Shown here: in pieces, positions 18,529 to 23,343 of the stretch | How positions within the stretch are numbered: position 1 is the stretch's first letter | Layout: each line of letters opens with the position of its first letter | NCBI RefSeq assembly: GCF_001270745.1 | Contig: NZ_KQ434754.1 | Location: 377,792 to 441,791, forward strand | Length of the DNA stretch: 64,000 nt | Source of the DNA: Jiangella muralis | GTDB taxonomy: Bacteria > Actinomycetota > Actinomycetes > Jiangellales > Jiangellaceae | Reading direction: 5' to 3' | The notes under the pieces: generated by a model | The model's input: the letters and a program-made list of their open reading frames with translations, nothing else | Told to the model about the DNA's origin: nothing | Databases searched by the model: none | Made by a program: the position numbers and the translations under genes

Positions 18529-19170
18529 TCAGTCGACGACGCCGTAGAGGCGGTCGCCGGCGTCGCCGAGGCCGGGCACGATGTAGCCCTTCTCGTTCAG
18601 CCGCTCGTCGACCGCCGCCGTCACCACCGTGACCGGCACGCCCAGCTCGCGCGTCTCCTCGTCCAGGTGCTGCACGCCCTCGGGCGCGGCCAGCAGGCAG
18701 ACCGCCGTGATGTCGTCGGCGCCCCGGTCGACGAGGAAGTGGACTGCCGCCGCCAGGGTGCCGCCGGTGGCCAGCATCGGGTCGAGCACGTAGCACTGCC
18801 GCCCGGTGAGGTCGTCGGGCAGCCGGGTGGCGTACGTGGTGGCCTGCAGGGTGTCCTCGTCGCGGATCATGCCGAGGAAGCCGACCTCGGCCGTCGGCAC
18901 CAGCCGGGCCATGCCGTCGAGCATGCCGAGGCCCGCACGCAGGATCGGCACGATCAGCGGCTTCGGCGAGCTGAGCTTCACGCCCGTGGTCAACGAGACC
19001 GGCGTCTGGATCTCGACGGTGTCGACGCGCGCCTCGCGGGTGGCCTCGTAGGCCAGCAGCGTGACCAGCTCATCGGCCAGTCGCCGGAACGTGGGCGAGT
19101 CGGTGCGGACGTTGCGCAGCACGGTGAGCTTGTGCGCGACGAGAGGGTGGTCGACGGCCAGCAAACGCAT
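18529..19170 (-). CDS. upp: Uracil phosphoribosyltransferase
   Basis: A 213-residue enzyme of typical length. It converts uracil and PRPP to UMP in pyrimidine salvage. Visible motifs are [11 protein letters not shown], the PRPP-binding loop DPMLATGGT, and the uracil-binding end [12 protein letters not shown]. It converges on pntB with a 7-bp gap and is divergent from a small conserved reading frame. The start at MRLLAVDHP fits the family. Confidence 0.95.
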
Positions 19171-19514: not shown

Positions 19515-19991
19515 GTGGTGTCCGACGATGAGGGTGTCGTCGACTTCGTGGTCGTGGTGTACCGCGAGGCCGGACGCTGGCTGGTCGAGACCGCGCCGCG
19601 ACAGCTCGGGAACGACCTCGGCAAGCTGGTCGACCTGCTGCGCGAGCGGCCGGGCGACGACGGGTCGCTGGCCTTCGTCTCCGTCGACGAGGACTTCTTC
19701 TACGCCGTCCGGCTGATCGGCGGCGACCTGCGGATGCTGCTGTCCGACGTCACCGCCGCGACCGACTGGCCGATGGCCCGCGACGTCGTCGAGCGGCTCG
19801 GGCTGCCGTACCCGGACGATGACGACCCGGTGCAGCCGGCCGGCGATCTGACGATCTTCGCCGACCTCGGCCTCGACCCGATGTCGCTGGCCGCGATCTG
19901 CGACGACATCGACACCTACCCCGACGAGCTGCTGCTACGCATCGCCGCCCGGGCCGGCTTCGGCCCACAGCTCGACGACGTGCTCCCCTAA
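19515..19991 (+). CDS. Putative tRNA adenosine deaminase-associated protein
   Basis: A 158-residue acidic protein starting at GTG 19515. It resembles the actinobacterial family usually encoded beside tadA (DFVVVVYREAGRWLVE, LRMLLSDVTAATDWP, GDLTIFADLGLDP). The biochemical role is unknown; partnership with TadA is inferred from conserved neighbourhood. Here tadA lies about 1.4 kb downstream because an opposite-strand GDH-like gene is between them. The stop codon overlaps the stop of that convergent gene. Confidence 0.78.
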   Translation: MVSDDEGVVDFVVVVYREAGRWLVETAPRQLGNDLGKLVDLLRERPGDDGSLAFVSVDEDFFYAVRLIGGDLRMLLSDVTAATDWPMARDVVERLGLPYPDDDDPVQPAGDLTIFADLGLDPMSLAAICDDIDTYPDELLLRIAARAGFGPQLDDVLP

Positions 19992-21259
19992 ATGCCGCCG
20001 CGCAACCGCATGGCCGCCGCGACGCGGTCGACGGCGAGCGCGTAGCCGGCCTGCCGGTAGCTGCAGTGGTGCTCCTCGCTGAACTCCGCGACCTCGGTGA
20101 ACGTCCGCTCGATGCGTCCGCGCAGCTCCGTCGCCAGCCGCAGCTCGTCCCACGGCACGCCAGCGACGCCCTGTGCCCACTCGGCGTACGCGGCGATGGC
20201 CGCGCCGCCGCCGGCCAGGAGGTCGGGCACGACCCGCACCCCGCGCGCGTCGAGGACGGCGTCGGCCTCCGGCGTGACGGGGTGCGCGGCGCCCTCGACC
20301 ACGATGCCCGCGCGCACGCCGTCGACGTTGAACGCCGTCAGCACCTCGCCGGTGGCCGCCGGGATCAGCACGTCGCAGTCGAGCGTCAGCAGCTCGTCCG
20401 GCGCGATGCGCTGCAGCGGCGCCCGGGAGTCGGCGACGGAGTACCCGGCGGCGGTGGCGCGCAGCAGCTCGGGGACGTCCAGCCCGCGCTCGTTCAGCAC
20501 CGTGCCACCGGCGTCGCCGACCGCGACCACCCGCACGCCGCGCACGAACAGCTCGCGCGCCACCCACGAGCCGACGTGGCCGAAGCCCTGGATCGCCACG
20601 CGCTGCGCCCCGAGGTCGATGCCCCAGCGCCGGGCCGCCGCCTCGAGCACGTACACCAGCCCTCGCCCGGCCGCGGCGTCGCCGCCTGGCACGCCGCCGA
20701 GGCCGAGCGGCTTGCCCGTGACCACGCCGGGCGCGTGCCCGTGCCGGCTTCCGTACGCGTCGAGGAACCAGGCCATGACGCGCGCGTCGGTGTTGAGGTC
20801 GGGCGCGGCGATGTCGAGCCGCGGCCCCATGACGTGGCTGACGGCCAGCGCGTAGCGCCGCGTGAGCGCCTCCAGCTCCGTCGTCGAGTAGTCGGACAGG
20901 TCGATCAGCAGGCTGCCCTGGGCGCCGCCGAATGGCAGGCCGTGCAGCGCCGAACGCCACGTCGTCAGCGACGCCAGTGCGCGGGTCTGCTGGAGGTCGG
21001 CGCGCGGGTGGAAGCGCAACCCGCCGAAGTACGGCCCGCGGGCGGCGTTGTGCTGGACGCGGTACCCCTGCACGACGGCGATGCTGCCGTCGTCGCGGCG
21101 CAGTGGCAGCTGCACGCCGAGCTCGCGGTCGTGCAGCTTGAGCAGCTCGTTCACGCCGGGACGGAGTTCGAGCTGCTCGGCCGCGCGGTCCACCGAACCG
21201 GCCACGGCGATGTCGGGGGTGAGGCCGCGGTCGATCATCGAGAGGGAGGTGAGGGTCAT
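19988..21259 (-). CDS. Glu/Leu/Phe/Val dehydrogenase-family protein lacking catalytic lysines
   Basis: A 423-residue protein with the whole GDH-family architecture: N-terminal substrate domain, then a Rossmann domain with VAIQGFGHVGSWVA. Family enzymes carry three key lysines in GPYKGG, (F/W)KxxL and GGAKGG. Here these read GPYFGG (F78), WRSAL (R102) and GGAQGS (Q114), while the catalytic aspartate of APDLNT (D154) is retained. Normal oxidative deamination therefore looks impossible. The frame is intact, so the gene is probably functional in another role (regulatory, binding, or altered chemistry). It lies between tadA and its associated gene. Confidence 0.85.
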   Translation of the reverse strand: MTLTSLSMIDRGLTPDIAVAGSVDRAAEQLELRPGVNELLKLHDRELGVQLPLRRDDGSIAVVQGYRVQHNAARGPYFGGLRFHPRADLQQTRALASLTTWRSALHGLPFGGAQGSLLIDLSDYSTTELEALTRRYALAVSHVMGPRLDIAAPDLNTDARVMAWFLDAYGSRHGHAPGVVTGKPLGLGGVPGGDAAAGRGLVYVLEAAARRWGIDLGAQRVAIQGFGHVGSWVARELFVRGVRVVAVGDAGGTVLNERGLDVPELLRATAAGYSVADSRAPLQRIAPDELLTLDCDVLIPAATGEVLTAFNVDGVRAGIVVEGAAHPVTPEADAVLDARGVRVVPDLLAGGGAAIAAYAEWAQGVAGVPWDELRLATELRGRIERTFTEVAEFSEEHHCSYRQAGYALAVDRVAAAMRLRGGI

Positions 21260-21382
21260 GGAATCTCCCGTAAAGCGAACGCTCGTTCTTCTAAGTGTGC
21301 ATCGGTGAGACGTGTGTCGTCAAAGCATCCTGTGTCGTTCCTGTGGCCACGCTGAGAAGGCCGGCCGCGTAGGGTCTGGGGC

Positions 21383-21853
21383 ATGTTCGCGGGACCGGCC
21401 GGCCGCCGCCACGAGCCGCTCATGCGCCTCGCGCTGGCCGAGGCCGAACTGGCGCCGTCGACCGGCGACGTCCCGATCGGGGCCGTCGTGGTCGATGCGG
21501 GCGGCGCCGTGCTCGGCCGCGGCCACAACCGGCGCGAGGCCGACGCCGACCCGACGGCGCACGCGGAGGTGCTGGCGCTACGCGCCGCGGCGGCCGTGGC
21601 CGGCGCGTGGCGGCTGGAGGGGTGCACGCTGGTCGTCACGATGGAGCCGTGCTCGATGTGCGCCGGCGCGCTCGTCCTGGCCCGCGTCGACCGGTTGGTC
21701 TACGGCGCGCCCGACCCCAAGGCGGGCGCCGTCGGCTCGCTCTGGGACCTCGTCCGTGATCGCCGGCTCAACCACCGCCCGGAGGTGGTGTCCGGCGTCC
21801 TCGCCGACGAGTGCGGCGCGCTCGTCCGCGAGTTCTTCGCCGCCCAGCGGTGA
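21383..21853 (+). CDS. tadA: tRNA-specific adenosine deaminase
   Basis: A 156-residue zinc deaminase that converts wobble A34 to inosine in tRNA-Arg(ACG). The zinc and proton-shuttle motifs are intact: HAE at 60-62 and PCSMC at 89-93. The family end LWDLVRDRRLNHRPEV is present. The first ATG (21383) is used; an internal start at MRLALAE (codon 14) is also possible. The gene ends four bases before a 35-bp palindrome that overlaps the next start. Confidence 0.94.
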   Translation: MFAGPAGRRHEPLMRLALAEAELAPSTGDVPIGAVVVDAGGAVLGRGHNRREADADPTAHAEVLALRAAAAVAGAWRLEGCTLVVTMEPCSMCAGALVLARVDRLVYGAPDPKAGAVGSLWDLVRDRRLNHRPEVVSGVLADECGALVREFFAAQR

Positions 21854-21856
21854 CTT

Positions 21857-21891
21857 AACATTCATTTATGTATGATACATAGATGAATGTT
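21857..21891. promoter_or_regulatory. 35-bp near-perfect AT-rich palindrome over the ATPase start
   Basis: The 17-base arms (21857-21873 and 21875-21891) flank one central base and are complementary except for one pair. The arms start AACATTCAT and end ATGAATGTT, and the latter supplies the ATG at 21883. Neighbouring DNA is GC-rich, so this block stands out. TATGAT at 21871-21876 could be a -10 for a leaderless transcript. It could be an operator, a terminator for tadA, or both. Confidence 0.65.
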
Positions 21892-23343
21892 GACCCCGGC
21901 CGGTTCTACGGGCGGCGGGCGCTGCTCACCCGGCTGGGCCGCGAGCTCGCGCAGGTCGCCGCCACGGGCCGCGGCCGCATGCTCGCCGTGCGCGGCCGGC
22001 GGCAGGTCGGCAAGTCGCGCCTGCTGACGCACTTCGTCGAGACGTGCGGGCGGCCGTACCTCTACACGACCGCCGTCAAGAACGCCTCGCCGAGCGTGCA
22101 GCTCGCCGGCCTCACCCGCGACGCCCTCGCGTCGACGACGCCGCTCCCGGAGGCGTCCGCGGTGTTCGCCTCGCCGCCGGCGTCGTGGGACGAGTTCTTC
22201 GGCCTCCTCCGGCTCACGCTGCAGCGGTCGCCGGCGGTCGTGGTCGTCGACGAGTTCCCCTGGGCCGTGCAGGCCGACCCGACGCTGGAAGGGACGCTGC
22301 AGAACGCCTGGGACCGCACGCTCGAGAACCTGCCGGTCCTGCTCGTGGTCGTGGGGTCCGACGTCGCCATGATGGAACGGCTGACCGAGCACGACCGCCC
22401 GCTGTTCGGCCGCGCCGGCATCGTCGTCGTCCAGCCGTTCGACCCGTACGAGTGCGCGGAGCTGCTCGGCCCGGACCGCACCGCGGTCGCCGCGTTCGAC
22501 GCGCACCTCGTCACCGGCGGTTACCCACGGCTGCTCGGACGGCTGGCCGCCTCCGGCACGGCGGAGGATTTCGTCCGCGAGCAGCTGGCGGACGAGACCT
22601 CCGACCTCGCCGTGCTGGCGCAGCTCGCCCTCGACGCCGAGTTCCCACCCGACTCCCAGGCCCGCCGGATCCTCACCGCCATCGGCAGCGCCGAGGCCGG
22701 CCCGGTCACGTTCTCGCGGGTCACCCAGACCATCGACGGCGACACCGCGACCGTGCAGACCGCGGTCACCCGGGGCCTGAAGGTCCTCGCGGGCATCGGC
22801 GGGGTGGTCGCGGTCGACCTGCCCGCCGGCGCGGCGCCGAACAGCCGGCTGCGGCGGTACCGCGTCGCCGACCCGTACCTGCGGTTCTGGTTCCGGTTCG
22901 TCGGACCCCAGCTGGCCAACATCGCCCGTGGACGCGGAGACCTCGCGATCGACGCGTTCGGCCGCGGCTGGCCGTCGTGGCGGGGCAAGGCGATCGAGCC
23001 GGTCGTCCGTGCCGCCGTGCTGCGGCTGGCGCCCGACCTCGGGCCGCTGAACGACGCCGACGCCGTCGGGGGCTGGTGGAACCGCGACAACTCGACGGAG
23101 GTCGACCTCGTCGCGGCGCATGGCCCGCTGGTCCGGGCGGTCGGGTCGGTCAAGTGGCGGACGACCACGCCGCTGACCGCCGCCGACGCCGCCGCCCTGC
23201 GCAGTGCCCGCCACGTCCTCCCGGGCGCCGACGCCGCCGCCCTCGTCGCCGTGTGCCCGGCCGGCGCGGCCGGCGACGCCGACGTCGATCTCGTCCTCCG
23301 CGCCGACGACCTCCTCGCCGCCTGGGCCGTCCGCACCTCATGA
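21883..23343 (+). CDS. AAA-type ATPase with C-terminal DUF234-like domain
   Basis: This 486-residue protein belongs to the STAND-like/archaeal-type ATPase group: Walker A RRQVGKSRLL near residue 39, Walker B VVVVDEFPW, then a winged-helix part and a C-terminal DUF234-like segment (RVADPYLRFWFRFV). In related proteins the end forms a PD-(D/E)xK-like nuclease; here EVDLVA is present, but the expected E-x-K reads SVK, so cutting is doubtful. There is no SD; ATG 21883 lies in a palindrome, suggesting leaderless translation. The role is unknown. It separates tadA from tRNA-Ser and may be acquired. Confidence 0.8.
   Translation: MNVDPGRFYGRRALLTRLGRELAQVAATGRGRMLAVRGRRQVGKSRLLTHFVETCGRPYLYTTAVKNASPSVQLAGLTRDALASTTPLPEASAVFASPPASWDEFFGLLRLTLQRSPAVVVVDEFPWAVQADPTLEGTLQNAWDRTLENLPVLLVVVGSDVAMMERLTEHDRPLFGRAGIVVVQPFDPYECAELLGPDRTAVAAFDAHLVTGGYPRLLGRLAASGTAEDFVREQLADETSDLAVLAQLALDAEFPPDSQARRILTAIGSAEAGPVTFSRVTQTIDGDTATVQTAVTRGLKVLAGIGGVVAVDLPAGAAPNSRLRRYRVADPYLRFWFRFVGPQLANIARGRGDLAIDAFGRGWPSWRGKAIEPVVRAAVLRLAPDLGPLNDADAVGGWWNRDNSTEVDLVAAHGPLVRAVGSVKWRTTTPLTAADAAALRSARHVLPGADAAALVAVCPAGAAGDADVDLVLRADDLLAAWAVRTS

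What the first reader, a model, noticed from the sequence alone, without database searches (positions are those of the whole stretch)
19988..21259. GDH-family protein with all three active-site lysines replaced
GPYKGG, xKxxL and GGAKGG of family dehydrogenases read GPYFGG (F78), WRSAL (R102) and GGAQGS (Q114), yet the aspartate (D154), the Rossmann motif and the reading frame are intact. These lysines bind substrate carboxylate and drive catalysis in clostridial GDH. Loss of all three with a preserved fold implies a pseudoenzyme or new chemistry rather than decay.
Basis: partly seen in the sequence, partly recalled or inferred. Interest (0 to 1): 0.74.

Follow-up and report, generated by a model that had tools for sequence, protein, structure and literature searches.

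The report
Catalytically dead glutamate dehydrogenase relative
In soil bacteria of the genus Jiangella, a glutamate dehydrogenase has lost its catalytic lysines and most of its substrate- and nicotinamide-binding residues, yet selection still keeps the rest of the protein intact, so it is probably a non-enzyme with a regulatory or structural role that can now be tested.

Summary
The gene (minus strand, 423 aa) is a full-length S_50-II glutamate dehydrogenase (GDH) homologue. F78, R102 and Q114 replace lysines invariant in 35 canonical relatives; D154 is kept. No lysine has moved nearby: the protein has only K41 and K183.

The loss is wider than reported: nicotinamide and carboxylate residues (T197, N325, N350, S357) are also replaced, while the ADP-ribose side of the NAD site is kept.

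It is a lineage trait, not decay. Eight Jiangella genomes carry it at one locus (upp–TIGR03941–gdh–tadA) with omega about 0.06–0.1, like housekeeping neighbours. Two other Jiangella have an intermediate (K,K,H); a sister genus has the canonical enzyme there. So the catalytic lysine went first.

Best reading: a GDH pseudoenzyme, probably an oligomeric regulator or scaffold. The known analogue, Thermus thermophilus GdhA, needs an active GDH partner; five of the eight genomes have no other 50-kDa GDH, so that model fits poorly. All ten Jiangella promoters carry GAACN4GTTCG, resembling the recA operator of this genome (candidate LexA box, untested). Partner, ligand and function remain unknown.

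The parts
19988..21259 (-). GDH-like pseudoenzyme CDS, 423 aa (PF02812 + PF00208), ATG start
   Evidence: model mean pLDDT 91.8; Z 60.0, rmsd 1.3 A over 410 residues to Arabidopsis GDH1 6yei
21026..21028 (-). codon 78, Phe (Leu in the seven closest orthologues) at the gamma-carboxylate lysine (C. symbiosum K89, E. coli K92)
20954..20956 (-). codon 102, Arg at the alpha-carboxylate lysine (C. symbiosum K113, E. coli K116)
20918..20920 (-). codon 114, Gln at the catalytic lysine (C. symbiosum K125, Arabidopsis K102); His in the two intermediate Jiangella
20798..20800 (-). codon 154, Asp: retained catalytic-aspartate position (C. symbiosum D165, Arabidopsis D142)
20669..20671 (-). codon 197, Ala at nicotinamide-site Thr (Arabidopsis T185)
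20285..20287 (-). codon 325, Ala at nicotinamide/carboxylate Asn (Arabidopsis N312, E. coli N348)
20210..20212 (-). codon 350, Gly at nicotinamide-site Asn (Arabidopsis N337)
20189..20191 (-). codon 357, Ala at gamma-carboxylate Ser (E. coli S380)
21265..21269 (-). GGGAG Shine-Dalgarno-like sequence before the ATG
   Evidence: conserved in all 10 Jiangella orthologues
21276..21288 (-). palindrome GAACGAGCGTTCG, candidate LexA (SOS) operator
   Evidence: GAACN4GTTCG in all 10 Jiangella, disrupted in the canonical orthologue of G001
21293..21324 (-). promoter-like block: TTTGAC (21324-21319) and a TGC-ACACTT -10-like element (21301-21293)
   Evidence: position conserved in the orthologues including G001; its role as a promoter is inference
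18529..19170 (-). upp, uracil phosphoribosyltransferase: syntenic neighbour, apparently unrelated function
19515..19991 (+). TIGR03941 tRNA adenosine deaminase-associated protein: convergent neighbour, overlapping the gdh-like 3' end by 4 bases
21383..21853 (+). tadA, tRNA adenosine(34) deaminase: divergent neighbour

Best explanation
This is a glutamate dehydrogenase pseudoenzyme. SHOWN from sequence: a canonical S_50-II GDH at the upp/tadA locus was inherited vertically into Jiangella; its catalytic lysine (K125 position) was lost first, then the substrate-carboxylate and nicotinamide residues, while the predicted fold, the catalytic-aspartate position and the ADP-ribose half of the NAD site were kept; the product is now under strong purifying selection. 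INFERRED: it no longer deaminates amino acids but still folds as an oligomer, probably the family's hexamer, and acts by binding. Most likely it regulates or scaffolds another protein, perhaps gated by an adenine nucleotide or by domain closure. INFERRED and weaker: its expression may be under a LexA-type operator.
For: K is 35/35 in canonical relatives at all three sites, and the protein's only lysines are K41 and K183. All four residues said to form the nicotinamide site in Arabidopsis GDH1 are replaced (T197A, N325A, N350G, N228H; position 228 is N or K in canonical relatives), while GxGxxG, D249, R82 and H84 are kept. Fixed changes concentrate in the catalytic set: 7 of 9 near-invariant catalytic columns against 6 of 91 others, one-sided Fisher p = 3e-6; the roles come from published structures, but the set was assembled after the changed columns had been seen. 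Eight orthologues without internal stops at one syntenic locus. Grid-best omega 0.06, about equal fit at 0.1; 2dlnL 639 against omega = 1; neighbours tadA 0.1, pntB 0.06. Tree: canonical G001, then the K,K,H pair, then the L/F,R,Q clade. Mean pLDDT 91.8 and Z 60 to GDH1. This genome and the 12 relatives searched also carry a large GDH-180, so the old reaction has another gene.
Against: No biochemistry. The catalytic-aspartate position and the Rossmann motif are retained, so weak or altered activity is not excluded. Oligomerisation and partner binding are assumed from the family, not tested. Two Jiangella genomes (G012, G015) lack the gene with the locus otherwise intact, so it is dispensable in the genus. 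No co-varying partner gene was found in the neighbourhood.
Confidence: 0.65

Rival explanations
1. Inactive regulatory subunit that co-assembles with an active GDH subunit, as Thermus thermophilus GdhA does with GdhB.
For: A catalytically inactive GDH subunit in a 4:2 GdhA:GdhB hexamer is established for T. thermophilus (PMC9570180). The leucine-site positions R135 and D167 are present. A chain of the Thermus hetero-hexamer superposes at Z 56.8. One of the eight genomes (G014) has a canonical S_50-II paralogue.
Against: Seven of the eight genomes have no canonical S_50-II paralogue, and five (G006, G007, G009, G010, G013; listed as at least 99% complete) have no other 50-kDa GDH, only LeuDH-like proteins and the GDH-180. 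In G008 and G011, which carry the intermediate form and do have the paralogue, R135 is Q.
Confidence: 0.1
2. An enzyme with altered substrate or chemistry: the pocket is made hydrophobic and carboxylate anchors are removed, as in leucine dehydrogenase or engineered amine-forming GDHs.
For: L78 is the residue that the genome's own leucine-dehydrogenase-like paralogue has at this site (GPALGGTR). K102 and N325 are the carboxylate pair whose replacement widened the substrate range of E. coli GDH (K116/N348; PMC8784811). The aspartate position and GxGxxG are kept, and selection is strong.
Against: The LeuDH-like paralogue keeps the catalytic lysine (GGGKA), as does the engineered E. coli enzyme; here it is Gln, and T197, N350 and N228 of the nicotinamide site are changed too. 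Several formerly invariant active-site columns vary among the eight orthologues (78, 99, 181, 192, 196, 200), as if no longer constrained.
Confidence: 0.13
3. Non-catalytic sensor that still binds an amino acid or keto acid in the old active site, with R102 on the alpha-carboxylate and D154 on the amino group.
For: R102 and D154 are invariant in the clade; L78 and A357 would make a hydrophobic side-chain pocket.
Against: N325, the second carboxylate ligand, is lost, and neighbouring pocket positions drift within the clade.
Confidence: 0.1
4. Recent pseudogene or sequencing artefact.
For: The gene is absent in G012, G015 and G002.
Against: Eight separate assemblies agree; no stops or frameshifts; omega about 0.06-0.1 over a mean dS of 0.28.
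Confidence: 0.02

Closest known systems
Canonical S_50-II (50-kDa hexameric) glutamate dehydrogenases, e.g. Arabidopsis GDH1, Thermotoga maritima GDH, Thermus GdhB
   Same: Full-length homology (39-41% identity in structure alignment), same fold, same two domains, GxGxxG, catalytic-aspartate position
   Different: All three lysines, the gamma-carboxylate Ser and the nicotinamide Thr/Asn residues are replaced
Thermus thermophilus GdhA, inactive leucine-responsive subunit of a GDH hetero-hexamer (PDB 3aoe)
   Same: Inactive GDH-fold protein related to active GDHs (GdhA inactivity taken from PMC9570180)
   Different: No active S_50-II partner in seven of eight genomes and no other 50-kDa GDH in five; lies at the upp/tadA locus without a gdh partner beside it. 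The GdhA residues at the lysine sites could not be read here
Bacillus subtilis RocG/GudB moonlighting (RocG acting on GltC; GDH-glutamate synthase counter-enzyme complex, PDB 7mfm)
   Same: GDH-fold protein acting through binding to another protein
   Different: RocG and GudB are active enzymes; no such partner has been shown here
Leucine dehydrogenase
   Same: Leu at the gamma-carboxylate lysine position
   Different: Leucine dehydrogenase keeps the other two lysines and is a shorter protein

Membership tests
ELFV dehydrogenase fold family (Pfam PF02812 + PF00208) | Both domains above the curated cut-off | tested here: met
   PF00208 186.8 bits (cut-off 23.4), PF02812 147.2 bits (cut-off 25.3)
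ELFV dehydrogenase fold family (Pfam PF02812 + PF00208) | GDH fold | tested here: met
   Predicted model, pLDDT 91.8; Z 60.0, rmsd 1.3 A over 410 residues to 6yei
Functional glutamate dehydrogenase | Catalytic lysine (C. symbiosum K125) | tested here: not met
   Q114; K in 35/35 canonical relatives
Functional glutamate dehydrogenase | Substrate-carboxylate residues (E. coli K92, K116, N348, S380) | tested here: not met
   F/L78, R102, A325, A357
Functional glutamate dehydrogenase | Catalytic aspartate (C. symbiosum D165) | tested here: met
   D154 in all orthologues
Functional glutamate dehydrogenase | Nicotinamide-site residues T185, N312, N337 (Arabidopsis GDH1) | tested here: not met
   A197, A325, G350
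Functional glutamate dehydrogenase | Adenosine/pyrophosphate side: GxGxxG and the following Asp | tested here: met
   GFGHVG and D249 conserved
Functional glutamate dehydrogenase | Enzyme activity | not testable with these tools
   Needs purified protein
Thermus GdhA-type regulatory subunit | An active S_50-II GDH partner in the same genome | tested here: not met
   Absent in seven of eight genomes, including this one; five have no other 50-kDa GDH
Thermus GdhA-type regulatory subunit | Leucine-site Arg and Asp | tested here: met
   R135 and D167 present, but also present in canonical relatives such as G001 and T. maritima, so not discriminating
Thermus GdhA-type regulatory subunit | Hetero-hexamer formation | not testable with these tools
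   Needs purified complexes
LexA (SOS) regulon | GAACN4GTTC-type operator in the promoter | tested here: inconclusive
   Present and conserved in 10 Jiangella; similar boxes before recA and lexA; no binding or induction data, and 90 strand hits genome-wide

The most novel reading that the evidence does not exclude
A stand-alone GDH pseudoenzyme: an inactive GDH-fold protein that keeps only the ADP-ribose half of the NAD site and works as a nucleotide-responsive regulator or scaffold without any active GDH partner, possibly induced through LexA in the DNA-damage response.
Probability: 0.15. Interest if true: 0.75.

Novelty: new variant of a known kind. Interest (0 to 1): 0.52.

Why it matters
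The inactive GDH homologue found in the literature searched here is Thermus GdhA, which works inside a hexamer with an active partner. Jiangella offers an inactive form that mostly lacks such a partner, together with an ordered series at one locus: canonical enzyme in a sister genus, catalytic lysine lost in two species, whole active site lost in eight. That makes the usually invisible transition from enzyme to pseudoenzyme testable with sequenced, named species, and it warns that an automatic 'glutamate dehydrogenase' annotation of this gene is probably wrong about activity.

Tried and rejected
1) Reading the Thermus GdhA chain (3aoe_E) at the lysine sites: six PDB sequence searches with whole, composite and fragment queries never brought it into the printed alignments, so its inactivity is cited from PMC9570180 only. 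The two primary Thermus papers looked up are not held.
3) Looking for the same loss elsewhere: a class-wide draw of 394 genomes gave no relative outside the family closer than about 47% identity. Lysine sites were read only for some of the fetched loci, so independent losses elsewhere are not excluded.
4) Antisense ORF of 429 aa over the gene: regarded as a GC-rich shadow ORF, not pursued.
5) A partner gene in the neighbourhood: the extra ORF between TIGR03941 and gdh in some genomes looks glyoxalase-like by eye and is absent in others.
6) Link to upp by analogy with the Thermus GDH/APRT-homologue complex: dropped, because upp meets the ordinary upp model and stays in place where the gdh gene is missing.
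7) iqtree did not print omega; it was obtained by fixing omega on a grid and by NG86. A first species-tree run failed on thread count (rerun).
8) The species tree from neighbouring genes is poorly resolved at the base, so whether G012/G015 lost the full-loss form or an intermediate is open.
9) No paper in the library mentions both Jiangella and glutamate dehydrogenase.

Full report
THE OBSERVATION. The ORF at 19988-21259 is on the minus strand and encodes 423 aa. Pfam places both ELFV dehydrogenase domains far above cut-off, and phmmer aligns residues 21-421 with S_50-II GDHs of known structure (best E 5e-101, 8s38). The three family lysines read F78, R102 and Q114 in ungapped alignment with Thermotoga, plant and Thermus GdhB GDHs; the catalytic aspartate position is D154. 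No lysine has migrated: the protein holds only K41 and K183, and K183 is present in every canonical relative listed.

IT IS WIDER THAN REPORTED. Against 35 canonical relatives with 100 near-invariant columns, the clade has fixed K78L/F, E91Q, K102R, K114Q, G116S, R193G, T197A, L303T, N325A, N350G, G353A, V354A and S357A. Using residue roles from published structures (Arabidopsis GDH1, PMC7326016; E. coli GDH, PMC8784811), 7 of 9 near-invariant catalytic columns changed against 6 of 91 others (one-sided Fisher p = 3e-6). The set of nine was put together after the changed columns had been seen, so the p-value is descriptive. Three of the six 'others' (R193, G353, V354) are, from general knowledge of clostridial GDH, also active-site positions. 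The nicotinamide site described for Arabidopsis (T185, N216, N312, N337) is A197, H228, A325, G350 here; position 228 is N or K in canonical relatives, so it carries less weight. The ADP-ribose side (GFGxVG, D249, R82, H84) is intact.

ORIGIN AND DISTRIBUTION. Named hits identify the genus as Jiangella: J. rhizosphaerae, J. endophytica, J. anatolica, J. aurantiaca (91-94% identity) and J. asiatica (71%). Of twelve Jiangella genomes searched, eight carry the L/F,R,Q form, two (G008, G011) an intermediate K,K,H form, and two (G012, G015) none. All ten genes, and the canonical K,K,K gene of the sister-genus genome G001, sit between the TIGR03941 gene and tadA next to upp. In G012 and G015 the locus is intact without it. 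The protein tree gives G001 outside, then K,K,H, then L/F,R,Q (support 97/90 with G001, 100/100 for Jiangella, 100/100 for the eight). The catalytic lysine was therefore lost first, together with N325; the carboxylate lysines, T197 and S357 followed on the stem of the eight-genome clade.

NOT DECAY. Among the eight genomes the codon fit is best at omega 0.06, with nearly equal likelihood at 0.1 (lnL -3586.5 and -3586.7; -3906.1 at omega 1; 2dlnL 639); mean NG86 dN 0.039, dS 0.280. Neighbours on the same grid: tadA 0.1, TIGR03941 0.15, upp 0.03, pntB 0.06. AlphaFold2 with a 39-sequence alignment gives mean pLDDT 91.8, and VIA-align 2 puts the model on Arabidopsis GDH1 at Z 60.0, 1.3 A over 410 residues. 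Within the clade several formerly invariant active-site columns vary (78, 99, 181, 192, 196, 200), which suggests that the old active site itself is less constrained than the rest.

HOW IT MOST LIKELY WORKS. Shown: loss of the catalytic and nicotinamide residues, a retained predicted fold and nucleotide half-site, purifying selection. Inferred: no dehydrogenase activity; an oligomer; function by binding. The precedent for an inactive GDH subunit is T. thermophilus GdhA, which forms a 4:2 hexamer with active GdhB and mediates leucine activation (PMC9570180). That scheme lacks its partner here: this genome has only a divergent 465-aa NADP-type GDH (31% identity), a LeuDH-like protein and a GDH-180, and five of the eight genomes have no other 50-kDa GDH. 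Binding-based roles of GDH-fold proteins are otherwise known in Bacillus (RocG with GltC; GDH-glutamate synthase complex 7mfm, listed). A partner of that kind is the most likely role but is untested.

NEW CHEMISTRY. L78 matches the LeuDH-like paralogue (GPALGGTR), and K102/N325 are the pair altered in engineered E. coli GDH, so a changed substrate was considered. Those enzymes keep the catalytic lysine; this protein does not, and it has also lost the nicotinamide site. Probability kept at 0.13.

EXPRESSION CLUE. All ten Jiangella promoters share a TTTGAC and a TGC-type -10-like element, then GAACGAGCGTTCG (GAACGAACGTTCG in G013) and a GGGAG ribosome site; the canonical orthologue in G001 has GAACGAATATCCG instead. 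recA of this genome has TCGAACACCCGTTCG about 120 bases before a likely ATG, and TTCGAACAGATGTTTGA lies before the lexA DNA-binding domain. GAACN4GTTCG has 90 strand hits genome-wide, and the match was noticed after the fact, so this is a lead, not a result.

VERDICT. Filed as a new variant of a known kind (inactive GDH homologue), notable for mostly lacking the usual active partner and for its preserved intermediates.

Noticed in passing
window 21276-21288 (-): Conserved palindrome GAACGAGCGTTCG before the gdh-like gene in ten Jiangella genomes, resembling the operator-like boxes before recA and lexA of the same genome; possible SOS control.
   Followed up: partly
L082:8001-9224 (Acrocarpospora phusangensis): A GDH relative with GPARGG and GGAQAG and with the TGKP loop missing: apparently an independent loss of GDH catalytic residues in Streptosporangiaceae.
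   Followed up: no
L076:8001-9185 (Spongiactinospora gelatinilytica): GDH relative reading GGANGG at the catalytic-lysine motif while the other two lysines are kept.
   Followed up: no
L102 (G012), L103 (G015), L104 (G002): The upp-tadA locus is present without the gdh-like gene; in G012 the TIGR03941-tadA gap holds a glyoxalase-like ORF that also lies beside the gdh-like gene in G009.
   Followed up: partly
window 21883-23343 (+): A 486-aa ATPase-like gene next to tadA that was found in full in only some Jiangella (G006, G007; a fragment in G005), suggesting a mobile or frequently lost gene.
   Followed up: no
G008:C37 and G011:C1: The canonical S_50-II GDH paralogue lies about 10 kb from the GDH-180 gene in both genomes.
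   Followed up: no
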